The notes under the pieces are model-generated. The model made no database searches. It saw nothing but the letters and a program-made list of their open reading frames with translations, and had not been told where the DNA came from. From a bacterium (GTDB taxonomy: Bacteria > Bacteroidota > Bacteroidia > B-17B0 > Aurantibacillaceae), in contig JAQSCW010000047.1 in the NCBI GenBank assembly GCA_029945625.1, positions 1 through 64,000 of the forward strand: a stretch of DNA of 64,000 nt, in the 5' to 3' direction. The position numbers and the translations under genes were made by a program. Shown piece after piece: positions 851-20,877 of this stretch; position 1 is the stretch's first letter; each line of letters opens with the position of its first letter.

Positions 851-891
851 TGTAAGCGCCACACAGTTTTATTTAGTTTACGTGTCAGTGT

Positions 892-1443: not shown

Positions 1444-1446
1444 AGT

Positions 1447-2013
1447 TTAAGTTTTAAGTTTATTAATTGTATTAGATAAAATTATTTTCCTTTTAACTCT
1501 GTATTCGTCAAAGGAAATTTGATTTTTTAAATATTGGTCTTGGATTAAATTATGATTAGCCATAAAATACTCCAAGGATGAATTTTTAATAATTAGCATA
1601 TGGACGTCCTCTAAACTTTTGTCAATTAAAAAGTCTGAATCTTTTTGAAGGTCGTAATAATAATTATTTACAATTTTTATCGCTTCTCGTAAAGTATCTT
1701 TGTCTTGGTAAATATATGGATTACTTTTTTCGTCTTTGTTTTTTATTTTAATTGCTTCTGCTAAAACATTCTCGTGTGTCCTAGAATAATTTTTCTTTTC
1801 TGTTTGAGCAATAGCCTTTCGTAACAATTCATCATTTAAACCACTTAATTGGTCTTTAACATTTTGCTGATTTTCAAATTCCTTATGAGCAGTAAATCTT
1901 GGAATGACCTTTATTCCTAAAAACTTTTGAAGTAAATAATAAATTAAACCAAGGAAAAACATTACGACCAACATAATGCCAAGTCCTGTTATTATTCCTA
2001 TGAAATTGTCCAT
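1447..2013 (-). CDS. Hypothetical membrane-anchored protein, cassette C10 first gene
   Basis: A 188-residue protein with one N-terminal transmembrane helix (about residues 5-30, rich in Leu, Val, Ile and Phe) followed by a polar, helical, Lys/Asn-rich cytoplasmic part. Several charged segments between residues 45 and 120 could form coiled coil. No family is recognised. The start codon is 62 bases inside the C10 start boundary (2075), as in a normal cassette, and the downstream gene follows after 3 bases. A small membrane-plus-soluble pair inside a mobile cassette could be a defence or toxin-antitoxin-like unit, but nothing in the sequence proves it. Confidence 0.75.
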   Translation of the reverse strand: MDNFIGIITGLGIMLVVMFFLGLIYYLLQKFLGIKVIPRFTAHKEFENQQNVKDQLSGLNDELLRKAIAQTEKKNYSRTHENVLAEAIKIKNKDEKSNPYIYQDKDTLREAIKIVNNYYYDLQKDSDFLIDKSLEDVHMLIIKNSSLEYFMANHNLIQDQYLKNQISFDEYRVKRKIILSNTINKLKT

Positions 2014-2065
2014 ATATATTTAGTCTAATTTTTATCTTTTGTCATACCAACGTCGGTGCGCTTAT

Positions 2066-2205
2066 TGCATATAACGTTTTGCAGCTACAAGAAGTTGGCG
2101 ATTTCGAAGCACTAAACTGTCTGCCACCACAAAACTTGATACGAAGCACAAAGCTTCATTTAACCACTGAACCGCCAATTTCTTGTAGGTGCTGTTAGCT
2201 GCTGC
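2066..2205 (-). other. attC-like site E2
   Basis: Arms 2081-2100 and 2173-2192 pair along about 20 bases, bounded by TAAC (2072-2075) and GTTA (2194-2197). The loop is longer (about 70 bases) and not of the main loop family. It is the 3' site of cassette C9, the acetyltransferase cassette. Confidence 0.8.
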
Positions 2206-2236
2206 CCTTTCTGTCCAAATTCTGTGTCTTGTAAAA

Positions 2237-2842
2237 TTACAATTTTTCATATTTATCTTCATACAACTTTATAAGCATTTGTTGAACATCATTCCATTCT
2301 TCTTCTATAATACTATAGTAAGCTACACTTCTTTTGTCGCCATTTCTTATAACTACGTCTCTTAAAACTCCTTCAAATTTTCCACCAACTCTTTCAATAG
2401 CTTTTCTTGAACGTATATTTTTATTTGAAGTGATTATTTGTACTCGAATTGTTTTGAGTTCTTCAAAGCAATGTTTTAATAATAGGTATTTACACTCCTC
2501 ATTGTATCCTTTCCCCCAGTATTCTGGCAAATACCATGTATATCCAATTTCCAAATTGCGATGTTCTTCATTTAGGTGTAAGTACCTTGTCGAGCCCATT
2601 ACTTTTTCAGTTGCTTTATTTATAACAACAAAAGGATATTGCTCACCTTTGTCTCGTTTTATTATAGCCTCGTTCAATGCCCCAAGAAGTTTATCTTTAT
2701 CTGTCCCTTTAACAGGCATAAAGGTCCAGATAATTTCATCATCACTTAATCTAATAAGTTCGTCAAAATACTGTTCTGTTAATGGTATTAATCTAACTTT
2801 TTTACCTTCTAATATTAGAGGATGTTTTATCCAATTTGTCAT
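2237..2842 (-). CDS. GNAT acetyltransferase, RimJ/RimL-like
   Basis: A 201-residue GCN5-related N-acetyltransferase, expected to move an acetyl group from acetyl-CoA to an amine, often a protein N terminus or small molecule. The start LEGKKVRLIPL is the usual beta-1 strand of the RimJ/RimL group. The segment YLPEYWGKGYNEECKYLL (about 103-120) sits where the acetyl-CoA pyrophosphate loop falls, and RSRKAIERVGGKFEGVLR (about 144-161) is the conserved helix and strand after it. Length is normal for the family. It is the only gene of cassette C9, with ATG 83 bases from the cassette start. Substrate unknown; acetyltransferases are common integron cargo. Confidence 0.88.
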   Translation of the reverse strand: MTNWIKHPLILEGKKVRLIPLTEQYFDELIRLSDDEIIWTFMPVKGTDKDKLLGALNEAIIKRDKGEQYPFVVINKATEKVMGSTRYLHLNEEHRNLEIGYTWYLPEYWGKGYNEECKYLLLKHCFEELKTIRVQIITSNKNIRSRKAIERVGGKFEGVLRDVVIRNGDKRSVAYYSIIEEEWNDVQQMLIKLYEDKYEKL

Positions 2843-2909
2843 TGATTATTTTTTATTGAATGTAAAATATAATTTGGTTCAAGTTTTTCAAAGTTCAGTT
2901 TGTCTTCAT

Positions 2910-3040
2910 AGGGTTGCAGCTAACGTTTTGCGGCCTTGCCTAGTGCCTGTCGTCCGCAATGCTAAATGTACGAATGTCCAACGAGATGCCAAAATACCAC
3001 AGAAAACAGGCATTAGGCAAGACCGCTGTTATGTTTAGTG
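2910..3040 (-). other. attC-like site E3
   Basis: Arms 2930-2949 and 3007-3026, bounded by TAAC (2921-2924) and GTTA (3028-3031). The loop carries AAATGTACGAATGTCC, shared with E4 and with the isolated site at 42.1 kb. It is the 3' site of the large cassette C8. Confidence 0.8.
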
Positions 3041-3418
3041 CGCCCCACACAGTTTGCGACCAAGTGTCAGCCGTAATTGTCCGAAGAATTTGTTAGATGT
3101 CTTACGGAAATTAAAAGCCCGAATTTACCATGAACTGGTTTATTTTTTTGCGTGCGTTGGCAATGCGCTTTGAAAAAGTGCCCGTTCTAATAGGCGTTTA
3201 GGCTGTTGGAAATTTTACAAGCTTATTTTGCGCCACTAAAAATTACTTCCTTTGAAAAGAAGTGCAAAATGTGCTTGAAAAATGTGCGCTGGCGTGGGTG
3301 TCCGCTTACACACAGGTCAATACGTTAAGTTGGTTGTAAATGCCAATTAGTATTGAACATCCAAAAGCATCGCGGTGCATGGCTAGATTAAGTCATATAA
3401 TTTAAAATAGAAAATCTA
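3041..3418. repeat. Left flanking module of cassette C8 (LM-a)
   Basis: Non-coding. A hairpin at 3218-3277 pairs CAAGC and ATTTTGCG with their partners around an unpaired TT/GT step. Surrounding sequence (CGTTGGCAATGC, GGAAATTTTACAAGC, a CCACTAAAAATTA loop, AAATGTGCGC) matches the left modules in cassettes C4 and C1. It lies between E3 and the stop codon of the secreted protein gene. Confidence 0.65.
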
Positions 3419-5206
3419 TTACTCAAGTATTACAAACTTTTCATTGTTCACACCATAACTGGTAATAATTTGTAATTGATAATATCCCTGAGGAAGCTTT
3501 AAATCCAATTCTGTTGTTTCATTAAAGTAGCTACTGAATACTGTCTTTCCACCCAAGTCTGTAATTCTAAGTTGTCCAGAGCCTGGGTAATTGATGTTTA
3601 TTTTACCAGTCGATGGATTCGGATAAATTTGAATATGCGACTTTGTACTATTCTTCTGTATTGCTGTCGTATTGTTTGTGCAGGATACAACAACTTGCGT
3701 GAGTAAAGCAGAGTTTATACAGCCATTTAAGTCTGTGCCAGTTACTGTATAGGTTGATGTCACTGATGGAGAAACAATACTTCCTGAACTCCAAGTATAA
3801 GTGTTTGCACCAGTTGCTGAAAGTGTTGCTGAAGTCCCTAAACAAATGGAACTAGACGAAGAAGTAGCGTTAATATTAGGTAAAGAATTAACTGTAATTG
3901 TGGATGTGGCTTGATTAGAACAACCATTTGCGTCCGTTCCTGTAACAGTATAAGTTGTATTACTAATAGGTGTTACGATATTGCCAGAACTCCATGTATA
4001 AGTATTGGCACCAGTTGCAATTAGTGTAACAGAATTTCCAAAACAAATAGAAGTATTAGTTGCGATTACATTTGGCAATAGATTAACGATAATATTGGCA
4101 GTAACTGTATTTTGACAGCCTGTATTTGTATTTGTTCCAGTTATTGTATAATTTGATGTTGAGCTGAAATTAAAAATCGTTGGTAAATAATTATATGATG
4201 AAGCGCCAGTTGGAGTAAAATTAGCAACGCTACCATAACAGGTTGTAACATTGCTTACCGCTACTGTTGGATTTGGGTTAACTGAAACCAAAACTGTTTG
4301 TGAAGCAGTTGTGGAACATGAGTTATTGCTGCCCGTTACTGTATACGTGGTATTAAAAATTGGACTAACCACTTGTGTGCTAAATGAAATATTCGTCAGA
4401 TTTGAACCTGAAGCATTAAGTGTTGTTGAATTACCGCTACAAATTGTGGAAGGCGAAGCATTAATCGACACAACTGGATTTCCAACTACTGTAACTGAAA
4501 TTGTTTTTGTATTTGAAGTATTTGTAACTCCGAGATTTGTTAGAGTATTAGTTCCACTGGTATTGTATGCGGTTAAAGAAACAATGTAAATGCCAGGTGT
4601 GTTAAAAGCAACCTGAAAATTATTTGCATTTACAGTACCAGAGGGAGTAGACCCAATTGAAGAATTTGGCGAAACTGTTACTGAGGAAATCGACCCCCCA
4701 GGAATTGTCCAAATAAATTTCTTAGAATTCCATAATGAAGATGTAGTAGAAGAATTCTGAAAATTAAGAGTTGTTCCTTGACAAATGACTGTACTTGTCT
4801 GTGAAAAATTAGCTGTAGGGGTTGGTATGTTAGCTGAACATAAAACAGCTTGAAAGCTTGTATTAGTTATTGCACTACCAGAAATACTTGCTAATGTGTA
4901 TGAAACTACATAAGAACCAGTATCTGTAACTGAAGTAAGATAACCGAAATTTGGAAATGTTGAAAGAGAGGCTTGTGAATTCGCAATGAAATTGCTCGGG
5001 AGTGTTAACGTACCATTTTTTATAACAGTCCTAGATGAAATAGAGAAGCCAGAGGCGGCAGTAGCAGAGTAAGTTGTGAATCCATTGCATCCGATTGTGT
5101 AATGACTTCCCGGCAACGCATTGCCCACTTGAAAGGTAGTTGTTTGCGAAAATCCATCAAATGTTATAATTGTAATCAAAAACCAAATTAGCTTTTGTGT
5201 GTTCAT
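3419..5206 (-). CDS. Secreted repeat protein with T9SS type A sorting tag
   Basis: About 595 residues from ATG at 5206. This start was chosen over the longer frame because it gives a clean signal peptide (MNTQKLIWFLITIITFDGFS then Q). The body is a chain of immunoglobulin-like beta domains of the kind seen in Bacteroidota adhesins: repeats of about 75 residues carrying TYTVTG(T/S)...GC and LxATGANTYTWSSG. The last ~70 residues are a T9SS type A tag (IQIYPNPSTGKI ... LPQGYYQLQI ... KFVILE). It should be exported and either attached to the surface or released. It is one of three genes in cassette C8; at 1.8 kb it is unusually long cassette cargo. Confidence 0.85.
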   Translation of the reverse strand: MNTQKLIWFLITIITFDGFSQTTTFQVGNALPGSHYTIGCNGFTTYSATAASGFSISSRTVIKNGTLTLPSNFIANSQASLSTFPNFGYLTSVTDTGSYVVSYTLASISGSAITNTSFQAVLCSANIPTPTANFSQTSTVICQGTTLNFQNSSTTSSLWNSKKFIWTIPGGSISSVTVSPNSSIGSTPSGTVNANNFQVAFNTPGIYIVSLTAYNTSGTNTLTNLGVTNTSNTKTISVTVVGNPVVSINASPSTICSGNSTTLNASGSNLTNISFSTQVVSPIFNTTYTVTGSNNSCSTTASQTVLVSVNPNPTVAVSNVTTCYGSVANFTPTGASSYNYLPTIFNFSSTSNYTITGTNTNTGCQNTVTANIIVNLLPNVIATNTSICFGNSVTLIATGANTYTWSSGNIVTPISNTTYTVTGTDANGCSNQATSTITVNSLPNINATSSSSSICLGTSATLSATGANTYTWSSGSIVSPSVTSTYTVTGTDLNGCINSALLTQVVVSCTNNTTAIQKNSTKSHIQIYPNPSTGKININYPGSGQLRITDLGGKTVFSSYFNETTELDLKLPQGYYQLQIITSYGVNNEKFVILE

Positions 5207-5299
5207 GTAATATTTTATCCTTTTTGTTTTCATTTTATAGTTTTTAAAGTTTAAATTCTGATTCATGAACTTTTCATTTTAGAGTTTTAGAATATATCA

Positions 5300-6010
5300 C
5301 TAGTGCAATAATTTTAGAAAGTCCGAAATAAAAAGTGTTGATTCTGTATTAAGTTTTCGGTGCGATGAAATAAGCCTTTCTTTGCCTAACGCACTTGCAA
5401 GTGCATCTTCTTGAAATCGCGCTGTGTTTTTATAGTCTGGTAAATATTTCCAACAAGCAAAAAATCCGACACGAAATTTCTTCATTGTGGATTTAATTCT
5501 TGGATTTCTTTCTATACTGTCAAAATCAAAAACACCTGATGGGTAGTATAATAAACCTTTTGGAAGAACATCATTAGTCAAATAATAACTCTTTAAAACA
5601 TGAATATTTCTTTGAGCATTGGCCATTAGAGTCCATTCTGGAATTATGTATTCGCCATGGCAGAAACGAATAATATGTTGAAACAATCTTTCAGGAATAT
5701 TAATTGATTTACCAACATAGAGGGGCAAATACTCGCCTTTAACTTTAATGCCCCATACATAAATCCCAGATAATTTTTTTAAAGTGATATCTACTACATC
5801 TCCTGTAATTTTAATTTCGGGCTGTGGCTCACTTTCACTATACCTACTTTTTTTAAAAAACTCCTTTATTTTCAGGTATTCTAAAGAGTAAGGCCCAATT
5901 AATGAGGATTTGTGATTTGTTAATTTGTTATTAGTTTGTATCATAAATAAAGTCAGTTCGTCTCCATGGGCAGATGTACTCAAACTTACTTCAATTGTAC
6001 AGTTTTTCAT
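5300..6010 (-). CDS. GIY-YIG domain protein, cassette C8
   Basis: About 236 residues, starting at ATG 6010 (TTG just upstream). The GIY-YIG nuclease signature is visible: SGIYVWG (about 81-87), then LYVGKS (about 97-102), then NIPERLFQHI with the conserved Arg. Such domains cut DNA with one metal ion and occur in homing and restriction enzymes and in some phage-defence proteins. The N-terminal ~80 residues and the C-terminal ~100 are not recognised. It is divergent from the kelch gene, with 65 bases between the start codons. Stand-alone nuclease activity is inferred. Confidence 0.65.
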   Translation of the reverse strand: MKNCTIEVSLSTSAHGDELTLFMIQTNNKLTNHKSSLIGPYSLEYLKIKEFFKKSRYSESEPQPEIKITGDVVDITLKKLSGIYVWGIKVKGEYLPLYVGKSINIPERLFQHIIRFCHGEYIIPEWTLMANAQRNIHVLKSYYLTNDVLPKGLLYYPSGVFDFDSIERNPRIKSTMKKFRVGFFACWKYLPDYKNTARFQEDALASALGKERLISSHRKLNTESTLFISDFLKLLH

Positions 6011-6037
6011 CAATTCAAATAATTCAAATCGTTCAAG

Positions 6038-6070
6038 TTTGAATATCAGTATTTTAAGTCCTTATATTTG
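6038..6070 (+). promoter_or_regulatory. Bacteroidota-type promoter of the kelch gene
   Basis: TTTG (6038-6041), a 21-base spacer, then TATATTTG (6063-6070). This matches the Bacteroidota consensus TTTG / TAnnTTTG. The gene's ATG begins only 5 bases after the -7 box, so the transcript would have almost no leader. Confidence 0.6.
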
Positions 6071-6075
6071 CGGCA

Positions 6076-7362
6076 ATGGAAGCAAAAGAACTCAAAAAAA
6101 GAATTGAAAAGGTCTATGGCCAAGAAGTTAAATATGCTAGAGATTGTGACCCGCTTGCAATCGAAATTTCACAAAGTACCGGAGGGACTGTTTCGGCATC
6201 TACTGTAAAGAGACTATTGGGATTTGTTAAAACGTCAAGTAAACCAAGCCAATATACACTTGATACAATTGCAATATACCTTGGTTTTTCTGATTGGAAT
6301 AAATTGGTTTCAAGTGAAAATGCAACAGTTCCAAATGAAAATGGCTCTACAAATAAAGAGAATGAAATAGAAGAAGTTTTAATCACTACAAAAAAAGTTA
6401 ATAGTAAAATCAAAAAGAGTGTTGTCGCTTTTTCGTTAATAATAATATTGTTTTTGTTTTTTGGTTGGTTTTCTATGTCTGATTCAAGTACAAATTATAC
6501 CCAATTGCCTCATTTGCCAGAATTAAGAAATGCAGGTAGGGCTGTAAGCTATGATAAAGCAATTTATTATGTTGGAGGTTCAGATGCGGTTTACGTGCGA
6601 AACGATAATTGGAAGTTTGATTTTGATATGAAAAAATGGATAGAACTATTAGCGATGCCCACAGCCAGAGCTGAGTTTGGAGCCACAATAGTTATTAGTA
6701 AAATTTATTGTTTTGGCGGATGGTTAGGAAATGATATTGGTGAAACAGATGTTGCTGAAGCTTATGATATTCAAACGAATTCGTGGGAAAAGTTACCAAA
6801 ACTTCCTGCGAAAATAACTTCTGCAAATGCGGTTTCGATAGGCTCTGAAGTTTTTATTATTGGCGGAACAACTGGAAAAACGAGAACACATTTTATAAAA
6901 TATGATACACGGAATAAATTATATGAAGAATTACCAGCACCAAAAACCCAACGATTGTATTGTGCAATGGTTACAGCAAATGGCTTAATTTATGCTATTG
7001 GAGGAAACTCCTTTACTGATGGAGAATACAAATGGCTCAATAACCTTTCCGTTTATAATCCAAAAAATAAAATTTGGACAGAACTTGCGCCATTACCTCT
7101 TGCAATAACAAGAAGTTGCGCTTTAGTCAGAGGGAATATGATTCATATTGCAGGTGGCTCAGACGGCTTTGGAAACGATAATGGGACTATAAGAAACAAT
7201 CATTTTGTTTACGACATACAAAAAAATATTTGGGAAGAAGAAAATCCTTTACCATATATAATTTCAGTTCATCAGTTTATTGTTCATGCTGGAAAATTAT
7301 TTCTAATTGGAGGTACATCACAATTTCCTAATCCTGTGAACAAATTTGTCTTATTGAATTAG
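6076..7362 (+). CDS. Membrane-anchored kelch-repeat protein with N-terminal DNA-binding-like domain
   Basis: A 428-residue protein in three parts. Residues 1-80 form a helical domain (SASTVKRLLGF ... SQYTLDTIAIYLGFSDW) seen at the start of many Bacteroidota regulators and probably cytoplasmic. Residues about 115-133 are one transmembrane helix. Residues 140-428 contain about five kelch repeats (the GG doublets in VGGSDA, GGTTGKT, IGGNSF, AGGSDG and IGGTSQ), predicted to be a periplasmic beta-propeller. It lies opposite to the cassette sense and has its own promoter. The layout suggests a transmembrane sensor, but the ligand and targets are unknown. Confidence 0.75.
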   Translation: MEAKELKKRIEKVYGQEVKYARDCDPLAIEISQSTGGTVSASTVKRLLGFVKTSSKPSQYTLDTIAIYLGFSDWNKLVSSENATVPNENGSTNKENEIEEVLITTKKVNSKIKKSVVAFSLIIILFLFFGWFSMSDSSTNYTQLPHLPELRNAGRAVSYDKAIYYVGGSDAVYVRNDNWKFDFDMKKWIELLAMPTARAEFGATIVISKIYCFGGWLGNDIGETDVAEAYDIQTNSWEKLPKLPAKITSANAVSIGSEVFIIGGTTGKTRTHFIKYDTRNKLYEELPAPKTQRLYCAMVTANGLIYAIGGNSFTDGEYKWLNNLSVYNPKNKIWTELAPLPLAITRSCALVRGNMIHIAGGSDGFGNDNGTIRNNHFVYDIQKNIWEEENPLPYIISVHQFIVHAGKLFLIGGTSQFPNPVNKFVLLN

Positions 7363-7800
7363 CATCATAAATTTAAATATAATAAAAACCATGCTGCCGG
7401 TCAGGCGCGCTTTATGGCACGGAGTGCACGCGCATAAAAAGTGGCGTTTTACGACACACCGCTTCCTTTGTGCGGCTGGAATTTAGCTTATTTGTTTTTG
7501 CCTGTCTCTTGCAAAAACAAATGTGCTAAATTAGCGATAGCCATTACGCCCGTGTCGGGCGAAAAAAGCGTCGGCAAGTAAAAATATAAACATACCGAAA
7601 TTTTACCAAGCAGAAAGAAGAGTCCGAAAACCTGTCCTTGTTGGTTGAAGCGAAAATTAATTTAAGAACGTCAGAACCGATGTCAATTGTCAGCCGTAAT
7701 GTTATTGTTCTTGTCGAGCCGAGATGAAGGAAAAATTGTCCACCGAGATGCTAATGTTCTTGTCAAGCCGAAATGTTGATAGGTCCACCGGGCGCATTGA
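7363..7800. repeat. Right flanking module of cassette C8 (RM-a)
   Basis: Non-coding. A hairpin at 7480-7532 pairs AATTTAGC and ATTTGTTTTTGC arms around the same TT/GT internal step as the other modules. It is followed by GATAGCCA and, near 7566, AAAAGCGTCGGCAA, shared with the right modules of C4 and C1. The last 200 bases show repeated GTCCACCGAGATG / GAGCCGAGATG motifs and no gene. Confidence 0.65.
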
Positions 7801-7915
7801 ACATAACGTTATGCGGCTACAAGTTGTGCCGCCGTCCGAATAGTTAAATGTACAAATGTCCGCCGAAAGTTACAACACCGAAATGCGCGGCATAACTTGT
7901 AGGTGCGGTTAGGCG
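7795..7915 (-). other. attC-like site E4
   Basis: Arms 7813-7832 and 7887-7906, bounded by TAAC (7804-7807) and GTTA (7908-7911). The loop has TAAATGTACAAATGTCC, shared with E3 and the 42.1-kb site. The stop codon of the C7 gene overlaps its R'' core, which fits the consensus RYYYAAC exactly (GCCTAAC). Confidence 0.85.
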
Positions 7916-8427
7916 TAGTATTTTTTGTCCAGATATTTATATTTTTCTGGCGCATATAATTTAAGTCTGTCGTAAACAAGATACTTTATAAGTTGGTCAT
8001 AACTGTCGAAGGATTTTTTAAATTCTATTCGTTGTCTTTCTACGAAAATATATTCATAACTTATGTCTGAATGGTTTATAAAAAAACCGTCAATTAAGTG
8101 ATTAGGGTCAAAGCGCATTTTTGTCTGCAAGTCTTGCAATTTTAAATGTGTGTAATATATATCTGGCTCGATGTTTATGTAATGGTTTAAAAGTCCAGTA
8201 GGTATAAATTCGAATTTCGTCAAGGTCGATAAGTAACTTGTGTTTTCACTATCAAGAATGTCAAACTGTTGGTCGTTTGTCAGTTTTGGATAACCAATTG
8301 CTTTATGAGCGTCAAAAATGTCCGCGTGTTTTTTCTCATAATTTCTCTTGTGCAAGTAAATTGTCAGCTTTAGGTATAAAAAAAGTCCTAGTCCGACTGT
8401 CAAAATTATGAATATGATTGTCCACAT
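7909..8427 (-). CDS. Hypothetical membrane-anchored protein filling cassette C7
   Basis: A 172-residue protein with one N-terminal transmembrane helix (about residues 2-22, MWTIIFIILTVGLGLFLYL) and a charged, Tyr- and Lys-rich cytoplasmic domain with no recognised fold. I chose ATG at 8427, which lies 15 bases from the cassette core GTTAGGC. A longer reading frame (to 8505) runs through attC-like site E5 and is rejected. The stop codon TAA lies within the R'' core of site E4. Start and stop nearly touching the recombination cores make this the most textbook cassette of the array. Confidence 0.8.
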   Translation of the reverse strand: MWTIIFIILTVGLGLFLYLKLTIYLHKRNYEKKHADIFDAHKAIGYPKLTNDQQFDILDSENTSYLSTLTKFEFIPTGLLNHYINIEPDIYYTHLKLQDLQTKMRFDPNHLIDGFFINHSDISYEYIFVERQRIEFKKSFDSYDQLIKYLVYDRLKLYAPEKYKYLDKKYYA

Positions 8428-8431
8428 AATA

Positions 8432-8535
8432 TTACGCCTAACGTTTTCCAAGCAGGCGTAAGTTTTTTGCTTGTCCAAGTTATGCATTTGAGCGCAAACA
8501 CGCAAAAAATTACGCTTGCTTGGTGTTAGCTGTCT
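8432..8535 (-). other. attC-like site E5
   Basis: Arms 8448-8470 and 8502-8523 with one extra base in the left arm, bounded by TAAC (8439-8442) and GTTA (8525-8528). Its R' core on the minus strand is GTTAGGC, a perfect match to GTTRRRY. Main loop family (CCAAGTTATGCATTTGAGCG). Confidence 0.88.
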
Positions 8536-8560
8536 GGTGGCGGCACACAGCTGCGAACAA

Positions 8561-9238
8561 CTATTTAAAAAGGTCCGTGAAAGCTATTTTAAATTCTTCA
8601 AGAGTGTCATAATACTTGTCAGCGCGAGTTGTAAAGTCCGGTTCATTTTCTTTTACCTCTGAAAGTCCAAAGTATTCTTTTCCTTTGTCGAGTTCAAGTT
8701 GTACTACAAACAAACGGTTCTTATACCAAACGTCAACCATTATGCAACCCGAAGGAAGCCAAGTGCTTTCATATTTTGCGTTATGACTCGATACTATTTT
8801 GCAAATGAATGCAAGCGAGTCAGTAAAGAGAGTAGAATATTCAGGAAGGTTTAGTCCAACGATTTCTATTACCTCGCATTCGGCCGATTTAATACCCTCC
8901 ATAAAATAACCCTTTTGCCCGACTTTGATTCTTTCTTTGTGCATTTCCTGAAGCTTTTCATTTAAGATCCACATTTTTGCTTTGCCTGTCTGCGGAACAC
9001 GAATTGTTTTGTCAAGGATTATTTTATTGTCTTGGTCGAGGAATTCAGGATGAATCATCCACATTTTACATTTCTGTTTGTCCTCAACTTCATCTTCTGC
9101 ATACATGAAGTCCGAACGATAACCTTGAATTGGCGTCCCTGTTTTTCGTCCGCCTTCGTCCTCAGTGTAAAATCTATACTTTACAATGAAGTCGCAAGGT
9201 CGATGTCTTATATGTTCGTATGGTGTATGTTTGTCCAA
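8561..9238 (-). CDS. Hypothetical protein of cassette C6
   Basis: A 225-residue soluble protein with no signal peptide. Near the N terminus, DFIVKYRFYTEDEGGRKTG followed by GYRSDFMY faintly recalls the beta-barrel of the C-terminal domain of elongation factor Tu. The remainder is mixed alpha/beta, with KYFGLSEVKENEPDF near the end. I do not assign a function. It is the only gene in C6, beginning 45 bases inside the cassette start and ending about 32 bases before the GTTA of E5. Confidence 0.75.
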   Translation of the reverse strand: MDKHTPYEHIRHRPCDFIVKYRFYTEDEGGRKTGTPIQGYRSDFMYAEDEVEDKQKCKMWMIHPEFLDQDNKIILDKTIRVPQTGKAKMWILNEKLQEMHKERIKVGQKGYFMEGIKSAECEVIEIVGLNLPEYSTLFTDSLAFICKIVSSHNAKYESTWLPSGCIMVDVWYKNRLFVVQLELDKGKEYFGLSEVKENEPDFTTRADKYYDTLEEFKIAFTDLFK

Positions 9239-9269
9239 AAGTTTTTTGTCTTACGAAATGTCTGTCCGC

Positions 9270-9380
9270 CACTTGCAGCTAACGTTTTCCGACTACGCGT
9301 CCGTTTTTTGCTAATGTCCACCAACACATTTGAGCGTTAACACGCAAAAAATGGAGCGTAGTTGGTGTTAGCACCTGCTT
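9270..9380 (-). other. attC-like site E6
   Basis: Arms 9289-9311 and 9344-9365, bounded by TAAC (9280-9283) and GTTA (9367-9370). The stem sequence (GACTACGCG / CGTAGTTGG) differs from E5 but still pairs, while the TTTTTTGC / GCAAAAAAT tip and the GAGCGTTAACAC loop are kept. It is the 3' site of cassette C5. Confidence 0.83.
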
Positions 9381-9431
9381 TGGTTACTAACATTACACAA
9401 CGATTGAGTGTCCGCAAATATATTTGTCCGC

Positions 9432-9779
9432 TTATTTGGAAACAATTATTTTGTTTGTGTTTGTCCCGTGCTTGCTTGAAATACGTAATATATAAATGCC
9501 ATTTACTAAGCTGTTGTTTACAATAGCCGTAGTCCCGTTTATTGTCAAGTTTAACATTTCAAGTCCTGTCATATTATACAAGATTACACTTTGGCTGTCT
9601 GCGGTGTTTGTCTTTATAGTAAATGTGCCCTGACAAGGGTTGGGGTAAATTTCATTTTGCAGTACAAAGGGAGCTGTCGGCTCTTGTATTATAGGAGCTG
9701 GGATTGTCGATGGATCTTTTTTGCAACTTAAAAAGAAAACAACAGAAAGAAATGTTATTGATAAAAGCTTTTTAAACAT
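9432..9779 (-). CDS. Small lipoprotein that is almost only a T9SS sorting tag
   Basis: About 115 residues from ATG 9779 (an upstream in-frame start lies at 9797). The N terminus is a lipoprotein signal ending LSCKK, the lipobox Cys being about residue 19. After a Pro-rich linker of about 25 residues comes a complete T9SS type A tag (NEIYPNPCQGTF ... LVNGIYILRI ... NKIIVSK). There is no other folded domain. A lipobox and a T9SS tag on the same short chain is odd, since T9SS cargo normally leaves by signal peptidase I cleavage. It is the sole gene of cassette C5. Confidence 0.8.
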   Translation of the reverse strand: MFKKLLSITFLSVVFFLSCKKDPSTIPAPIIQEPTAPFVLQNEIYPNPCQGTFTIKTNTADSQSVILYNMTGLEMLNLTINGTTAIVNNSLVNGIYILRISSKHGTNTNKIIVSK

Positions 9780-9797
9780 AATGAATTTCCTAAACAA

Positions 9798-9929
9798 ATA
9801 TAAGATAATTTTTTAAATACGTGTCTGCGTTGCAATGCAAAAACGGTCACCTGTCCGCTTGTATTGTCTGAAAATGTTTTTTTGTCAATGATGAACTTGT
9901 CCGAGAGACGGGTCTACCAAAGTTGGTGC
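9798..9929. other. Non-coding start of cassette C5
   Basis: The stretch between the lipoprotein start and site E7 is AT-rich and holds no gene, only repeated TGTCCG motifs typical of the array's non-coding DNA. Confidence 0.5.
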
Positions 9930-10030
9930 TAACGTTTTGCGCCTAGGCACAGTTTTTTGCTTGTCCAAGTTATGCATTTGAGCGTTAACACGCAAAAAAT
10001 TGGGCTTAGGCGCTGTTAGTACCAGTTGCC
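9922..10030 (-). other. attC-like site E7
   Basis: Arms 9939-9960 and 9992-10013 of equal length, bounded by TAAC (9930-9933) and GTTA (10015-10018). Main loop family. It is the 3' site of C4, the restriction-modification cassette. Confidence 0.85.
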
Positions 10031-10270
10031 GCCACACAGTTTAACTTCTGGTCACGTGTCCGATGATAAATTGTAATGTTGTCGACCTAGTTTTTGATGT
10101 CCAAACTTTTAATTTTTTGAGCGTTGGCAATGCAATTTGAAAAATTGCTCGTTCTAATGTCCACACAGGCGGGGAGGAAATTTTGCAAGCTTATTTGGCG
10201 CCACTAAAATTATATGCCTTTAAAATAAGCGCCAAATGTGCTTGGAAAATGTGCGAGGGCTTTAAGTCTA
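10020..10270. repeat. Left flanking module of cassette C4 (LM-b)
   Basis: Non-coding and closely similar to the module at 16100-16370 over about 230 bases, starting CAGTTGCCGCCACACAG. A hairpin at 10185-10244 pairs GCAAGC and ATTTGGCGC arms across a constant TT/GT mismatch; its loop has CCACTAAAATTA. It ends about 60 bases before the promoter of the methyltransferase gene. Confidence 0.7.
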
Positions 10271-10332
10271 GCTTAAAGTGCTTAGTTGCGGTTATAAAAA
10301 ATCATTGGTTGAAAATAAAAAAACAAATTTTC

Positions 10333-10362
10333 TTGGATATTTCGGTTTTGTCCGTAAATTTG
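10333..10362 (+). promoter_or_regulatory. Promoter of the restriction-modification genes
   Basis: TTG (10333-10335), a 19-base spacer and TAAATTTG (10355-10362) match the Bacteroidota promoter pattern. They support the ATG at 10389 as the true start and show that the operon does not depend on a promoter at the recombinase end. Confidence 0.55.
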
Positions 10363-10388
10363 TCCGTGTCCGTAAAAATGTCCGTAAT

Positions 10389-12614
10389 ATGATAAATGTA
10401 AAATTCTACCTTGATAAAGCTGATAAAAGCAAAAAGTTTCCAATTCATCTTGTCATTAGGCAAAAAGATGTCCAAGTCAAGGTTGCGACTGGTGAAAAAA
10501 TTTTGAAAAAGGATTGGGACAATAAAAATCAAGTTGTCAAAGAGACGGAATACACATATAAGTCAATAAATAAGTTTTTATCCTTTTTGCAACAGGAGGT
10601 TGAGAAATATTTTGATGCGGTTCCACATTCTCAATTTACAGATAAAAAAGTCAAAGAGAAGATTTTATCGCTGGTAAATAGTCGAAAAGTTAATACCGAT
10701 ATTAAAATGGTCTGCGAAAATCCCGCAGAATATGAAGGAAAAACGAAAACAACATTTGTCGATTTATTTGCTGGTGCCGGCGGTTTTAGTGAGGGCTTTC
10801 TTCAAGCGGAACACGGAAATAGATATTATGATTTTTTACTAGGAAGCGATATAAACGAGAATTGCGAATTGACTCATCTTGCTCGATACAATTACCAACT
10901 TGGAATGGATGCGGAATTTTTGCGTCAAGATATCACCGAACCAGATTTTTTAGATAATCTATTAAAAAAGTTGAAAAGTCAGCAAGTTGACGTTGTATGC
11001 GGTGGGCCACCTTGCCAAAGTTTTAGTTTAGCTGGTAAGCGCAAGAAGTTTGATAAAAAGGATGATTTGTTTGCTCACTACTTAAATGTTATTCGTGTGC
11101 TGCGCCCAAAGTATTTTGTAATGGAAAACGTAAAAGGAATTCTTACAAAAGAAGGTGGAAAGATAAAAGAAATGATTCTGCAAGAAATAAAGTCAATCGT
11201 GGATTTGAAAGAATTTCACCAGTTAATATATTTTTTGGCAAAGCTTAGAAAAGCAGAAAAGGAAAAAACATTTACACTGGATTGCTACAATTTGCGTATG
11301 CAATTTGAATCAGCAAACGAAAAGGAATTGGAGAAATTAAGAGAAAGTTATATTCAGATTGTTGAAAATAAATTCCGTTTGTTAACTCCAAAAATTGCTG
11401 ATTATAAAACAAGCAAAACCGATATTAATATAAACACCGTTCGTCATGGTTTCAACTTACTAAAACGAAGCAAAGAATTATCCTATGTAAGAAAGAAGGT
11501 AATTTTAGAAAAGGCTCATAGTGATTTAGATAATGATTTTTTTGCTGAAAAATTTGATTCCTTTTTGACTTCCATAGAATCGGATTCAATTATTGAGCAA
11601 ATTCACGAAGCCTTTAATAATTTAAAACCTGCAAAAGCTTTTCAAAATGAAATCGCTGAAATAATATCGGCTTTAGAGATATACAATAATTCATTTGAAG
11701 AATGCATTCAAGGACTACAACCTTATGTTAAAGCATTAAAAGCAGAAACGGAATTTGAAGAGATTTTATCACACATTAGATTATATAATATTGATCAACC
11801 TTTTGTTGCTTTAGCTTCAAACTATGGTGTCCCTCAAAACAGAGAACGAGTTTTATTTATTGGGTGTCGCAAAGATCAGAAATTAGTAAAGGCTGTTCCG
11901 CCAACTGTGACCGAAAAGGAAAAGGTTACTGTCTTTGAGGCATTGCACGATTTAGATTTTGTTGGTAACGACGAAGAGAAATTTGATTATGAAAAAATTA
12001 ATTTAAAAGCAAAGTATAACGGTTCAACGGAAAAAATGGAAGCGCTTTTAAAGAAAAGAGCGATAGACGGAAAACCAGAAGACAAGAAGGGTCTAACTTA
12101 TGCAGAGTGGTCAAAAAAAGGGAGATTAAACGGAAGGTTTATTAATGCTAAAAATCCTTTTTATGTTAGAAATTTCGAAGAATTGGAAAACACATTATCG
12201 CATATTGTCGCACCATTGCACAATCATAAAACTAGCAAACAAAATGATGACGTTGTAAAAAGGCTTGATGTAATTTTAAGTACGGGTGATTATGATTTAG
12301 CGAAAAAGGAATTAAAAAAAATCGGATTGAATTCTGAAAAGAGAAATTACAACGTGCTAAAACCGAATTCTCAAAGTTCTACTATTATGACGATTGCGGA
12401 TGATTATATACATTATTCAAATCCAAGAGCATTAACAGTTCGAGAAATGGCAAGGTTGCAATCATTTGATGATTCGTTTGTTTTTCAAGGTAAACGTTCA
12501 ACTGGTGGCAATAAACGTAAATTTGAAGTGCCGCAATTTACATTAGTTGGTAATGCGGTTCCACCGTTAATGGCACGTGCCGTTGCATTGGAAATATTGA
12601 AAAATATAAAGTAG
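10389..12614 (+). CDS. DNA cytosine-5 methyltransferase with arm-type N-terminal domain
   Basis: A 741-residue enzyme that methylates C5 of cytosine with S-adenosylmethionine, protecting host DNA from its partner nuclease. Motif I FVDLFAGAGG (about 123-132), motif IV with catalytic Cys (GGPPCQS, Cys about 209), motif VI ENVKG (246-250), motif VIII QNRERVLFIG (483-492) and motif X GNAVPP (721-726) are all in order. An insert of about 200 residues lies between motifs VI and VIII. Residues 1-45 (VKFYLDK...FPIHLVIRQKDVQVKVATG...WD) look like the arm DNA-binding domain usually at the start of Bacteroidota tyrosine recombinases. The gene lies opposite to cassette sense, 6 bases before the endonuclease gene. 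An upstream in-frame start at 10278 is less likely given the promoter. Confidence 0.93.
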   Translation: MINVKFYLDKADKSKKFPIHLVIRQKDVQVKVATGEKILKKDWDNKNQVVKETEYTYKSINKFLSFLQQEVEKYFDAVPHSQFTDKKVKEKILSLVNSRKVNTDIKMVCENPAEYEGKTKTTFVDLFAGAGGFSEGFLQAEHGNRYYDFLLGSDINENCELTHLARYNYQLGMDAEFLRQDITEPDFLDNLLKKLKSQQVDVVCGGPPCQSFSLAGKRKKFDKKDDLFAHYLNVIRVLRPKYFVMENVKGILTKEGGKIKEMILQEIKSIVDLKEFHQLIYFLAKLRKAEKEKTFTLDCYNLRMQFESANEKELEKLRESYIQIVENKFRLLTPKIADYKTSKTDININTVRHGFNLLKRSKELSYVRKKVILEKAHSDLDNDFFAEKFDSFLTSIESDSIIEQIHEAFNNLKPAKAFQNEIAEIISALEIYNNSFEECIQGLQPYVKALKAETEFEEILSHIRLYNIDQPFVALASNYGVPQNRERVLFIGCRKDQKLVKAVPPTVTEKEKVTVFEALHDLDFVGNDEEKFDYEKINLKAKYNGSTEKMEALLKKRAIDGKPEDKKGLTYAEWSKKGRLNGRFINAKNPFYVRNFEELENTLSHIVAPLHNHKTSKQNDDVVKRLDVILSTGDYDLAKKELKKIGLNSEKRNYNVLKPNSQSSTIMTIADDYIHYSNPRALTVREMARLQSFDDSFVFQGKRSTGGNKRKFEVPQFTLVGNAVPPLMARAVALEILKNIK

Positions 12615-12620
12615 TCATTG

Positions 12621-13805
12621 ATGAGGCAATTAACCACACTTGAAATAAATAGGATAAAACTTCTAACTGAAAAATCTGTCGAACTTTGTCTGATTGAACC
12701 AACTGGAACTGGACTTGAAAAGTCAATCATGGATGCTACAGGGTCGGTTCGAACCTATTTGAAGGGCAATGATATTCACGATTTTGAATCACAAAAACAA
12801 GGTCAAGAAAACAAGATTCAAATTACTTCATTTTTAATATCTTCTAATGAATTGGTTAATTCTGTTGCTTCATTATATCGCCCGAACACTAAAAAAGGAG
12901 ATCCAAGAATTTGGTTCAAAGGATTGGGTAATTACTCAAGTGCAAACGATATTTTAGGAATAATTGCTTTTGAAAATGATTTGTATGTTTTGAATATTAC
13001 ACAACTTGATTTACACAAGTTAATTGAAAGCAAAACATCAAATCCACTTCAGGATTTAGTTAATGAAATAAATCAAATATCTAATGAAGTTGCAGATGAA
13101 CTCTTAGTTCTATTGAATAAAATTGGAGCAAAAGGTCCTGTCCCAGCAATGTTGAAAGCTGATACAGCAATTGGACGAACGCTTGAAACACTATTAGGGA
13201 TTGATATTAATTCGTCTAAAAAACCAGATTACAAAGGCATTGAATTAAAGTCATACCGTGATAAGCGAGGTAATAGAAAAAATCTGTTTGCACAGGTTCC
13301 CGATTGGAGTTTGAGTAAATTCAAAAGTTCTTCTGAAATATTGAACGCTTTTGGATACAGTCGGGGAGATGATTTTAAATTGTATTGCACTGTTTCAGCA
13401 CTTGTCAGAAATTCGCAAGGTTTGAAGTTAAAAATGGATAGCGACATAAGTCAGCTTATTGAAAACTCTGATAAATCAAGCATTGGAGATTTTGTTGTCT
13501 GGGGTCTAGAAACTTTACATAAGCGTCTGCTTGAAAAACACAATGAAACATTTTGGATTGCTGCCGATTCTATCACGATTGGTGGACAAGAACATTTTCA
13601 ATACAAAAAAGTTGAGCACACTAAAAAACCAATTGTTTCTCAGTTTGATATTTTATTGGAACAAGGAATTATTACGCTTGATCATTTGATTAAAAGAAAG
13701 CCAACAGGAAGTGTTGTAGAGAAAGGTCCAATTTTTAAGATTAAACCTAATGCTTTAGATTTACTATTTCCACCAAGTAAATCATATTCTTTACTTTCTA
13801 AATAA
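12621..13805 (+). CDS. Type II restriction endonuclease, MvaI/BcnI-like
   Basis: A 394-residue nuclease pairing with the upstream methyltransferase. The PD-(E/D)xK catalytic centre reads PDYKGIELK (about 202-210), with Asp about 203, Glu about 208 and Lys about 210; GIELKS and the preceding LGI(D)xNxxKKPDYKG are hallmarks of the MvaI/BcnI family. The C-terminal half (FSxSKFKSSSEIL, then SxISQLI) fits the same family. MvaI-type enzymes cut short CC-centred sites, but this enzyme's recognition sequence cannot be told. ATG 12621 follows the methyltransferase stop by 6 bases (TTG at 12618 is possible). It ends just before module RM-b. Confidence 0.8.
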   Translation: MRQLTTLEINRIKLLTEKSVELCLIEPTGTGLEKSIMDATGSVRTYLKGNDIHDFESQKQGQENKIQITSFLISSNELVNSVASLYRPNTKKGDPRIWFKGLGNYSSANDILGIIAFENDLYVLNITQLDLHKLIESKTSNPLQDLVNEINQISNEVADELLVLLNKIGAKGPVPAMLKADTAIGRTLETLLGIDINSSKKPDYKGIELKSYRDKRGNRKNLFAQVPDWSLSKFKSSSEILNAFGYSRGDDFKLYCTVSALVRNSQGLKLKMDSDISQLIENSDKSSIGDFVVWGLETLHKRLLEKHNETFWIAADSITIGGQEHFQYKKVEHTKKPIVSQFDILLEQGIITLDHLIKRKPTGSVVEKGPIFKIKPNALDLLFPPSKSYSLLSK

Positions 13806-13816
13806 ATAATAAAACG

Positions 13817-14174
13817 CCATACGCCCGTGGCCAGCGCCTTTGACTGAACGGAGTGAGATGCGCAAAAACGCTTGCCTGTCGGCAAGCACCACTTTTGTCT
13901 GTGCGTGGGCATTGCAGCTTATTTGTTTGGCTTTACTAAATGTCCCCCGAAGCCAAACAAATGTGCTGCAATTGAGATAGCCACATGTGCCGTGTCCCGG
14001 CACAAAAAAAGCGTCGGCAAAAAAATTAAAATTGTCTTGGAAAAATTTGTTTAAAAGTCCGAACGTCAACCGAAATGTTGTCGATCGGAATACCAGAAGT
14101 TTTTGAAAACGAAAACTCTTTTGTCTACCGTAAAATTGTCATTGGAAATGTCCGCTGCGGCAATTGGTACTAAC
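13817..14174. repeat. Right flanking module of cassette C4 (RM-b)
   Basis: Non-coding. It is nearly the same as 20878-21236 over its whole length of about 360 bases, from CCATACGCC to the cassette boundary. A hairpin at 13911-13972 pairs ATTGCAGC and ATTTGTTTGGCT arms around the TT/GT step. A second stem-loop GCTTGCC-TGTC-GGCAAGC is at about 13870-13887, and CGTGTCCCGGCACAAAAAAA follows near 13991. Confidence 0.75.
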
Positions 14175-14362
14175 GTTTTGCGCATTGGCGCCGGCCCCGT
14201 CGTCAGGTGCCGCCGGTTTTTAAAGACTCCAATGTCTGACCGAAGTTACGAAAAACCGAGCAAAAGCAAACACAAAGAATTTCCGCGGAGCGGACCTTAA
14301 TGTAAATTTGCTTTTGCCACCTCTTATGTCCGGGCTGGCGCCACATGCGCTGTTATATGCTG
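14165..14362 (-). other. attC-like site E8 (long form)
   Basis: The longest site, about 185 bases between TAAC (14171-14174) and GTTA (14352-14355). Outer arms 14180-14198 and 14332-14350 are GC-rich (GCGCATTGGCGCC / GGCGCCACATGCGC). An inner stem pairs AGCAAAAGCAAA with TTTGCTTTTGC, and a small hairpin TCCGCGGAGCGGA tops it. It is the 3' site of C3. Confidence 0.7.
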
Positions 14363-14655
14363 CCATGCGAGGTTTTGGTTACGTCTAGTTGTCGCCCTGC
14401 CTACGTCTGGATGGTACCCAAAGTAACCAAGAAAACCAAAACCTGAAGAAAAATTAAAAAGCGTAAGGGTCTGCGCGTCTGCCGAAACGATTTGGCTCGT
14501 GTGTGGCTGTGCGGTCTGCACGAAAAACAAACAACAGAAAATTTTTGAGCGTCTGCATATGAGCGCGTCTGCGTCCAGACGAGGTTTGTTTTTAGTGACG
14601 TGGGTCGGCTGCGCGTGATCGAGAATGGTTTGGGTTCCGCACGCGTGGTTGCATA
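14363..14655. other. Cassette C3 body, no convincing gene
   Basis: About 300 bases, richer in GC than the rest of the array. Minus-strand frames at 14324-14668 and 14401-14763 run through neighbouring attC-like sites and show no protein-like composition. GGTTTTGGTTACG (about 14371) is repeated inverted as AACCAAGAAAACCAAAACC (about 14426-14444), so a large hairpin may form. It could be a non-coding RNA cassette or a decayed one. Confidence 0.4.
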
Positions 14656-14755
14656 TAACGTTTTGCAAGCAGGCAACAGTTTTTGGCTAATGTCCACCCC
14701 TGTATTTGAGCAGCCCCGCGCCAAAAATTGTGCTTGCTTGCTGTTACAAGCTGTA
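14650..14755 (-). other. attC-like site E9
   Basis: Arms 14665-14687 and 14720-14741, bounded by TAAC (14656-14659) and GTTA (14743-14746). The tip is TTTTTGGC / GCCAAAAAT instead of TTTTTTGC, a compensating change, and the loop is a degenerate member of the main family. It is the 3' site of C2. Confidence 0.83.
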
Positions 14756-14794
14756 GGGCGCACACAGCTTAAATTCCGCTGTCGTTGTCAGCCG

Positions 14795-15922
14795 TTATTG
14801 TTTAATAATTTTTTTCCTTGATATACTTTTGTCTGTTGAGATTTCTAAAAAATACAAACCGCTGTCGAAACCCGTGAGGTCAAATGTAGTTGTCTTATTG
14901 GATAAATTGATTTTATAAATAGTTTGTCCGAGTGAATTAATGATTGAAGCTTGCGTTTTCTCGTAGGAATAATTCTCCAAATCTATTGTCAATGAGTTAG
15001 AAACGGGATTAGGAAAAATTGAAAAATTAGAAAAACTATTTTCTTCTTTTATACCGGCATAAATAGAATAGTTTGGATTTTTTATTAATATGGATTGTGT
15101 TACTGTGTCGCTACAGTTATTTGTAATGTCGTGTGTCCGCAACACTACCAACCAAGGAAATGTCTTTTCAAATGGAGAAGGGTAAGGATATAAATGGCTC
15201 ATTGTCGGTGTTGTTACATAAATAGGGTTGCCAAATCCTACAATTTCCCATTGATAGGATGTTGCATTTCGGTTCATTGCTGCGAACGTAACTAATGCGC
15301 CATTTACTTGGTAGTTTATGTTAATCTCAAAATTTGCAGAGCAGTTTTGATAATTTAAACTGGAAGAATAGTTGAATTTTACTGTTTGAAAATATTCTTT
15401 GAAAACTTTATATGAAATAGTGTCGGAATGAACAGCTTTAATCTTAGAGACGAACAGTGCTGACTGCCACCCTCCGCCAAACCAACAATTAAGAGCATTA
15501 TAACACGGACCAGTGTCGCCGCTTACAGAATAATAAGGATTACAGCCCGATGTCAAGTTAGTTAATTGATAACTGACACCGATAACTGTATCAGTATAGA
15601 AAAGATTACAAGATATTGTGTCGGGTTTATTTATTGTTATTAGCTTTTCAATGTAGTTGGAACAATTTGAAATGGTGTCGTGAGAAAACAGAGTAACTAA
15701 ATACTGTCCGTCGTCAGGAAAAATATGGATTGGATTCTTAATGTTTGAACCGTCACCGTCGCCAAAACTCCAATAATAGTGTGCGTTTGATAAAGTTGAA
15801 GTGTTATTAAATGTAATTGTGTCAGCAGAACCAGAATATGTATAACTCGCAGTACAGGTCTGTCCGAACGATACCTTTGATAAAGCTATTAAAAGAAAAG
15901 ATATTTTAATAATTGTCTTCAT
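14795..15922 (-). CDS. Secreted PKD-domain protein with T9SS type A tag, cassette C2
   Basis: A 375-residue exported protein. The signal peptide is residues 1-20 (MKTIIKISFLLIALSKVSFG). A PKD-type beta domain follows (about 22-95: YYWSFGDGDGSN and DDGQYLVTL are the usual PKD landmarks), then a less certain region with paired Cys residues, then a second PKD-like part (ATSYQWEIVGFG). The last 75 residues are a T9SS tag (FSIFPNPVSNSL ... GLYFLEISTDKSISRKKII). It is the only gene of cassette C2 and reads in cassette sense. A surface or adhesion role is likely but not shown. Confidence 0.88.
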   Translation of the reverse strand: MKTIIKISFLLIALSKVSFGQTCTASYTYSGSADTITFNNTSTLSNAHYYWSFGDGDGSNIKNPIHIFPDDGQYLVTLFSHDTISNCSNYIEKLITINKPDTISCNLFYTDTVIGVSYQLTNLTSGCNPYYSVSGDTGPCYNALNCWFGGGWQSALFVSKIKAVHSDTISYKVFKEYFQTVKFNYSSSLNYQNCSANFEININYQVNGALVTFAAMNRNATSYQWEIVGFGNPIYVTTPTMSHLYPYPSPFEKTFPWLVVLRTHDITNNCSDTVTQSILIKNPNYSIYAGIKEENSFSNFSIFPNPVSNSLTIDLENYSYEKTQASIINSLGQTIYKINLSNKTTTFDLTGFDSGLYFLEISTDKSISRKKIIKQ

Positions 15923-15999
15923 TTGATTTAAACGATTAATTGTCTATATTATTGTTTTAGAACCTAATGTAATTTGTCTGCCTGAATCTCTGTCCGCCC

Positions 16000-16105
16000 T
16001 ATTGCTTGTAACGTTATCCAAGCAGGCGTTAGTTTTTTGCTTGTCCAAGTTATGCATTTGAGCGTTAACACGCAAAAAATTACGCTTGCTTGGGGTTAGT
16101 ACCAG
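16000..16105 (-). other. attC-like site E10
   Basis: Arms 16018-16040 and 16072-16093, bounded by TAAC (16009-16012) and GTTA (16096-16099 region). Its sequence is almost the same as E5 and it has the main loop family. It is the 3' site of the first cassette, C1. Confidence 0.86.
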
Positions 16106-17574: not shown

Positions 17575-17616
17575 GTTGTTGAGAAACCTTAAATGTGCTT
17601 GCAAAAGCGTTAAGAC

Positions 17617-20787: not shown

Positions 20788-20877
20788 TCAAGCGAATTTA
20801 GGTTTTAATATAAAGAACTAATTTACTAAAAATGGCTTAACTATTGCTTTTTTGAATCTATATTTCAATCCATAATA

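What the first reader, a model, noticed from the sequence alone, without database searches (positions are those of the whole stretch)
8439..8529. Non-canonical attC geometry with a one-sided GTTTT bulge
Seen in E5 and repeated in nearly all sites: on one side of the stem the core TAAC is followed by GTTTT (or a variant) before the arm, on the other side only one base separates GTTA from the arm. Known: classical attC sites have unpaired spacers on both sides. Inference: the asymmetry could fix strand choice or orientation for this recombinase.
Basis: seen in the sequence. Interest (0 to 1): 0.75.

Follow-up and report, generated by a model that had tools for sequence, protein, structure and literature searches.

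The report
Integron-like array with one-sided-bulge hairpins
This bacterium carries an integron-like 'gene library' in which every gene unit ends in a DNA hairpin with a fixed one-sided bulge, next to a recombinase that lacks the helix classical integron enzymes use to read such hairpins, so it may be a second molecular solution to swapping genes through folded single-stranded DNA.

Summary
All ten hairpins at 756-16098 have TAAC + 5 nt (GTTTT/GTTAT/GTAAT) on one side and 1 nt + GTTA on the other. The same 5/1 geometry recurs in relatives across Bacteroidota (58 of 77 unselected hits downstream of the recombinase; 0 in shuffles, 0 upstream). Symmetric registers do not pair. In the better-folding strand the G makes a G.T wobble, leaving a pure T4 bulge.

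These are cassette sites of an integron-like system. Each cassette's start is complementary to its own end, so the crossover lies at GTTA on the 5-nt side. A conserved attI-like stretch lies between a tyrosine recombinase (21410-22612, minus) and the first cassette. One 1436-nt cassette occurs at 94-96% identity in three genomes, with edges at the predicted crossover.

It is not a classical integron. The recombinase lacks the ~42-residue IntI insertion (I2 region), the sites have no fixed extrahelical bases, and the clade is sister to IntI. A.C mismatches on the cassette strand become G.T wobbles on the other strand (89 sites vs 0), giving the hairpin a strand polarity. That the bulge sets strand or orientation is plausible but untested.

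The parts
8439..8528 (+). the site of the finding: TAAC-G-TTTT bulge-arm...arm-T-GTTA (strand that folds best; cassettes read on the - strand)
   Evidence: sequence; folds as TAACG/TGTTA + 4/0 T bulge + long stem, -23.5 kcal/mol
756..845 (+). attC-like site, spacers GTAAT / G
2072..2197 (+). attC-like site, 126 nt (commonest length in relatives), GTTTT / T
   Evidence: (model R1, 125.6 bits)
2921..3031 (+). attC-like site, GTTTT / T
7804..7911 (+). attC-like site, GTTAT / G
9280..9370 (+). attC-like site, GTTTT / T
9930..10018 (+). attC-like site, GTTTT / T
14171..14355 (+). attC-like site (long), GTTTT / T
14656..14746 (+). attC-like site, GTTTT / T
16009..16098 (+). attC-like site, GTTAT / G
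842..21236 (-). array of ten cassettes read on the - strand; start and end of every cassette complementary at positions 5-9 (48 of 50), against 24 of 50 within one linear site
21233..21409 (-). attI-like site: stop codon to first cassette junction, with inverted repeats ATACAACA/TGTTGTAT and ATACGCGCC/GGCGCGTAT, ending ATGGTA|GTTA
   Evidence: sequence; position and end motif conserved in relatives
21410..22612 (-). tyrosine recombinase, 400 aa: N-terminal domain (1-83), linker, core-binding and catalytic domains; no IntI insertion; transcribed towards the array

Best explanation
The feature is the cassette recombination site (attC analogue) of an integron-like gene-capture system of Bacteroidota, run by a Xer-like tyrosine recombinase without the IntI-specific insertion. 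SHOWN from sequence: (1) cassettes are units [TTAnnnn...gene...nnnnTAAC-hairpin-G], placed head to tail from an attI-like site next to the recombinase gene; (2) the crossover lies within GTTA on the side of the 5-nt spacer; (3) an excised circle would restore a 9-bp outer stem, a small conserved mismatch and about 4 further pairs next to the inner hairpin; (4) pairing of the arms is under selection and the one-sided interruption is fixed; (5) wobbles are polarised so that one strand (the window + strand, 'bottom') has G.T pairs where the other has A.C mismatches. INFERRED: the bottom strand is recombined as a folded single strand, as in integrons. The recombinase binds the outer and inner stems on either side of the six nucleotides C-GTTTT and cleaves near TAA|C. 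The bulge plus wobbles replace the extrahelical bases as the strand and orientation signal, perhaps read by the N-terminal HARP-like domain.
For: Geometry and nulls. Covariation on 52 sites: 94.0% of cells paired versus 69.2 +/- 0.9 shuffled, 272 double changes versus 74 +/- 7.5, slid registers 34-51%. Cassette-end complementarity 219/240 versus permuted mean 98, maximum 126; 48/50 in the window. attI-like site 92-107 nt after the recombinase stop in 79 of 98 loci. Sites lie downstream of the recombinase, in one orientation. A 1436-nt cassette is 96% and 94% identical, full length, in other genomes; the flanks diverge at the predicted edges. A covariance model of the site finds none in 12 IntI-only genomes but 11-21 sites in six genomes with this recombinase. 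Spacing between catalytic motifs is 64-66 residues in clade A against 105-107 in IntI. Wobble polarity 89 sites to 0. Papers: PMC2727003; PMC13148043 (Riemerella integrates a resistance gene by transformation, without homology, as one unit of 27 bp 5' UTR, CDS and 140 bp 3' UTR with an attC-like stem-loop).
Against: No recombination was assayed. Single-strand use is inferred from structure, and long imperfect palindromes could also act as double-stranded sites. About 40% of sites do not fold into the exact T4-bulge form by minimum energy, and the bottom strand is more stable in only 63 of 91 isolated sites. The HARP-like assignment is weak (Foldseek E 0.065; Pfam HARP in 4 of 47 members). In 21 of the 27 genomes of the order without a recombinase hit at the cut-off used, sites still occur, and three IntI genomes without this recombinase have one to three weak-to-strong hits, so sites can exist apart from the enzyme.
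Confidence: 0.8

Rival explanations
1. Double-strand site-specific recombination: the enzyme acts Xer-like on the duplex around TAAC/GTTA, and the hairpin is only an inverted pair of binding sites.
For: The recombinase resembles XerA/XerC/XerD and lacks the IntI insertion tied to single-strand recombination (PMC7790495). The attI-like site has repeated boxes in direct and inverted orientation.
Against: Arms vary freely in sequence but covary, which fits recognition of structure, not sequence. Wobbles are polarised to one strand (89 to 0), which has no meaning for a duplex site. The loop is long and variable, and the outer stem forms only in the excised circle.
Confidence: 0.13
2. A classical integron whose IntI secondarily lost the I2 insertion, so an offshoot of IntI and not a separate lineage.
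For: Array, attI, AAC/GTT core and crossover position all match integrons. The TIGR02249 model hits at 197 bits, below its 265 cut-off.
Against: IntI (12 rows) and clade A each form one clade (100/99), and the recombinase clades A and B group outside IntI (94/85). Clade B, at the attI end of arrays in the classical orientation, also lacks the insertion. Long branches and a distant outgroup leave the root uncertain.
Confidence: 0.12
3. The hairpins are ordinary repeats (terminators, REP/MITE-like elements) that spread between genes and have nothing to do with the recombinase.
For: Stable hairpins between genes are common; sites also occur in genomes without a recombinase hit.
Against: Orientation and position relative to the recombinase, complementarity of cassette ends across kilobases, full-length shared cassettes with edges at the core, and rarity upstream of the recombinase.
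Confidence: 0.03

Closest known systems
Classical integrons (IntI / attI / attC), including chromosomal integrons
   Same: Tyrosine recombinase next to an attI-like site; head-to-tail cassettes; AAC/GTT core with crossover on one side; hairpin sites conserved in structure, not sequence; cassette start complementary to cassette end.
   Different: No I2 insertion in the enzyme; no fixed extrahelical bases; one-sided T4 bulge in place of two unpaired spacers; longer outer stem with its own mismatch; strand polarity written in G.T wobbles; in clade A the recombinase is transcribed towards the array; N-terminal extra domain.
Xer recombinases (XerA, XerC/XerD, XerH)
   Same: Best sequence matches in the PDB (4a8e, 5hxy, 1a0p); same catalytic residues and no IntI insertion.
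   Different: Serves a multi-site cassette array, not a single dif; N-terminal extension; the genome holds two other Xer-like genes (L001, L003).
Homology-independent uptake of resistance genes by Riemerella anatipestifer (PMC13148043, 2026)
   Same: Unit of short 5' UTR, gene and 140-bp 3' UTR with an attC-like stem-loop, integrated at one site from transformed DNA.
   Different: No enzyme, attI or site family was named there, and I did not have its sequence; identity with this system is an inference.

Membership tests
Integron (IntI-attI-attC) | Tyrosine recombinase with catalytic R, K, H, R, H, Y | tested here: met
   All six conserved in the 55-sequence alignment.
Integron (IntI-attI-attC) | IntI-specific insertion (I2 region) in the catalytic domain | tested here: not met
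   GKxKDR to HxLRH spacing 64-66 residues versus 105-107 in 12 IntI; absent in every member aligned.
Integron (IntI-attI-attC) | attI next to the recombinase gene, at the start of the array | tested here: met
   Conserved end motif 92-107 nt after the stop codon in 79 of 98 loci. Function not assayed.
Integron (IntI-attI-attC) | Array of directly oriented hairpin sites with AAC/GTT core | tested here: met
Integron (IntI-attI-attC) | Unpaired central spacer on both arms | tested here: not met
   5 nt versus 1 nt, or T4 versus 0 after the G.T pair.
Integron (IntI-attI-attC) | Extrahelical bases (unpartnered G and T) on one arm | tested here: not met
   Arms pair without a length difference from the spacer to arm position 20; interruptions are mismatches or wobbles at fixed places.
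Integron (IntI-attI-attC) | Crossover at G|TT on one side of the site | tested here: met
   Placed within GTTA by cassette-end complementarity and shared-cassette edges; not resolved to the base.
Integron (IntI-attI-attC) | Recombination of the folded bottom strand | not testable with these tools
   Needs an assay with each strand delivered.
Integron (IntI-attI-attC) | Recombinase falls inside the IntI clade | tested here: not met
   Separate clade, sister to IntI on this sampling; long branches noted.
Xer/dif | Acts on a short dif-type site for chromosome dimer resolution | not tested
   No dif site was searched for; two other Xer-like genes exist in the genome.

The most novel reading that the evidence does not exclude
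A phylum-wide integron-like system of Bacteroidota in which a Xer-like recombinase without the I2 helix recombines folded single-stranded hairpins. Strand choice would be encoded by a one-sided T4 bulge and strand-polarised G.T wobbles, and read by a HARP-like N-terminal domain. It would be a second solution, or the pre-I2 sister state, of what is held to be unique to IntI.
Probability: 0.55. Interest if true: 0.92.

Novelty: new variant of a known kind. Interest (0 to 1): 0.85.

Why it matters
IntI is described as the only recombinase that joins single- and double-stranded sites, and its I2 helix with the extrahelical bases as what made that possible (PMC7790495). A sister lineage with the same cassette logic but neither feature makes that claim testable: which elements of a folded site are needed to pick strand and orientation, and was the cassette system older than I2? 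In practice, standard integron searches find almost nothing in this class (PMC9024848 reports only In0 and one Salinibacter case for Bacteroidetes), while a model built here finds sites in 59 of 62 good genomes of one order. A large cassette reservoir is being overlooked, possibly including the source of tet(X)-type resistance genes.

Tried and rejected
Symmetric spacer registers: rejected. Rfam: no hit at gathering scores. The ungapped scanner applied to canonical integron loci found few sites, because classical arms contain bulges; only three class 1 attC sites were folded for comparison, so my own curated attC set is small and the contrast leans on PMC2727003. blastn of a 126-nt site against plasmids: no match, as expected for sites conserved in structure only. 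Pfam on the window's own N-terminal domain: nothing. Two early readings were corrected: that the array reads on the + strand, and that the 5/1 loop is the folded form (it is G.T plus a T4 bulge). Literature: ten searches in the open-access library found no description of this system; subscription papers and preprints were not searchable.

Full report
What was checked. The finding describes the hairpin at 8439-8528. The sequence reads TAAC-GTTTT-CCAAGCAGGCGTAAG...TTACGCTTGCTTGG-T-GTTA. Ten such hairpins lie between 756 and 16098, and all have five bases after TAAC and one before GTTA. A scan that allows any spacer from 0 to 8 on each side gives the same geometry in relatives: 58 of 77 sites found downstream of homologous recombinases are exactly 1/5 on the recombinase strand (5/1 on the other). 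Shuffled sequence gives 2.25 hits and none of this geometry; 725 kb upstream gives 10 hits and none of this geometry.

Register and fold. On 91 sites only spacer pairs that differ by four bases bring the arms into pairing (0.77-0.87 of positions); symmetric spacers pair at 0.2-0.3. With DNA energies the window + strand pairs the G after TAAC with the T before GTTA, which leaves a 4/0 bulge of T's in 55 of 95 sites, among them 8439, 2072, 9280, 9930 and 14656. On the other strand the same place is an A.C mismatch. So the one-sided interruption is real, and on the better-folding strand it is a T4 bulge.

Selection on structure. In an alignment of 52 sites of about 126 nt, 94.0% of cells form standard pairs (shuffled 69.2 +/- 0.9) and 272 cells carry changes on both sides (shuffled 74 +/- 7.5); slid registers fall to 34-51%. 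Some positions are consistently imperfect: A.C on the cassette strand at position +15 in 71 of 91 sites and at +12 in 40 of 91, read as conserved G.T on the other strand. Counting all such places, 248 wobbles fall on the bottom strand and 39 on the cassette strand; 89 sites have more on the bottom and none more on the top. The fold is therefore polarised between the strands.

Cassettes. Read on the minus strand, each unit begins GTTAnnnn and ends nnnnTAAC-hairpin. The beginning of a unit is complementary to its own end, not to the other half of the linear site. In 48 cassettes, 219 of 240 positions match (permuted mean 98, maximum 126); in the window, 48 of 50 against 24 of 50 for the linear site. 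Pairing covers positions 5-9, is broken at 10-11, resumes at 12-15 and then ends. This fixes the unit and puts the crossover in GTTA on the five-base side. A 1436-nt cassette with a MerTP-like protein (my reading of its translation) in Pelobium manganitolerans (L094) is 96% identical over its full length in G020 and 94% in G025; the aligned part ends at or within a few bases of the cassette edges and the flanks of the G020 copy fall to 45-48% identity.

Recombinase and attI. The gene at 21410-22612 (minus) encodes a 400-aa tyrosine recombinase whose stop codon faces the array. Relatives with the same neighbour are spread over Bacteroidota: 60 of 87 genomes of the order, 39 of 395 of a phylum sample at a strict cut-off, and two Chryseobacterium plasmids carry the recombinase, one of them with four modelled sites downstream. 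Between stop codon and first GTTA lies a conserved stretch, 92-107 nt long in 79 of 98 loci (176 nt in the window), ending like GGCGGGTATAAaCaA|GTTA, with the same box repeated upstream in both orientations. A second clade (L192-L195) sits at the same end of arrays but is transcribed away from them, as intI is.

Why it is not a classical integron. All 22 clade A proteins have 64-66 residues between the GKxKDR and HxLRH motifs, clade B 63-67 where the motif was found, and 12 IntI proteins 105-107. The missing part is the IntI insertion with its I2 helix. In the tree IntI and clade A are each one clade (100/99), and clades A and B together are sister to IntI (94/85), with long branches that leave the root open. 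The sites lack the unpartnered bases that I2 binds in IntI. Published work on classical sites says that without those bases the spacer asymmetry alone keeps some strand polarity, and that its loss is severe (PMC2727003).

N-terminal domain. AlphaFold2 gives a confident domain at 1-83. Members match Pfam DUF5710 (18 of 47) and HARP (4 of 47), best E 5e-4 and 8e-4. Foldseek's most probable match is the SMARCAL1 HARP domain (probability 0.84, E 0.065); VIA-align puts ACT-like CASTOR first (Z 7.9) and the XPB damage-recognition domain at Z 5.2. A role in reading the bulged hairpin is a hypothesis.

Specificity control. The covariance model R1 finds no site in twelve genomes with true IntI and no recombinase of this kind, and 11 to 21 in six genomes with it (G107, G143, G154, G425, G429, G145). 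Three other IntI genomes have one to three hits. In the order it finds sites in 78 of 87 genomes. Sites without a detected recombinase exist (21 of 27 such genomes), as CALINs do for integrons.

Relation to published work. No paper in the searchable library describes the system. One 2026 paper on Riemerella anatipestifer saw homology-free integration of a resistance gene with 27 bp of 5' UTR and 140 bp of 3' UTR, noted an attC-like stem-loop and left the enzyme open (PMC13148043). Those lengths suit a cassette of this kind, but I did not have that sequence.

Verdict. The mechanism as integron-like cassette recombination is well supported by sequence; single-strand use and the role of the bulge in strand or orientation choice remain inferred.

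Noticed in passing
L190:6052-8170 (FJ012881, pHH1107); L191 (Acinetobacter baylyi pJAT2044): tet(X3) lies just downstream of 'TnpF', a 221-aa C-terminal piece of this recombinase family (49% identity), with an attI-like stretch GGCGTATAGCCACTT|GTTATGTGCC between them and possibly half a hairpin site after it. tet(X3) may have been a cassette of such an integron; model R1 finds no complete site there.
   Followed up: partly
window 3028-7807, 10015-14174, 16095-21236: Three large cassettes share conserved ends of about 250-400 nt with their own hairpins (AGCTTATTTG...CAAATGTGCT) but carry different cargo: kelch and secreted proteins; a type II restriction-modification pair; a SIR2-STAND protein. 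It looks like a cassette shell with exchanged contents.
   Followed up: partly
window 10278-12614: C5 cytosine methyltransferase with an N-terminal integrase-type Arm-DNA-bind_5 domain (PF17293, E 2.4e-5), followed by an MvaI/BcnI-like endonuclease.
   Followed up: no
window 22700-22970 and 27320-27580: A duplicated non-coding stretch (TTGATTGCTGCGTGAGCGATTGTAGTGGAAAGCCCACAGCCACGCC...), one copy just upstream of the recombinase gene and one about 4.6 kb further on.
   Followed up: no
L192-L195, L201: A second recombinase clade (36-43% identical) at the same end of arrays with the same 5/1 sites but transcribed away from the array; one cassette is shared between a clade A and a clade B array.
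   Followed up: partly
G000:C51:815-6866, G000:C52:5000-5110: More sites of the same kind on other contigs of this genome; the window begins at the contig end, so the array is cut by the assembly. Many relatives' contigs also end shortly after the recombinase.
   Followed up: no
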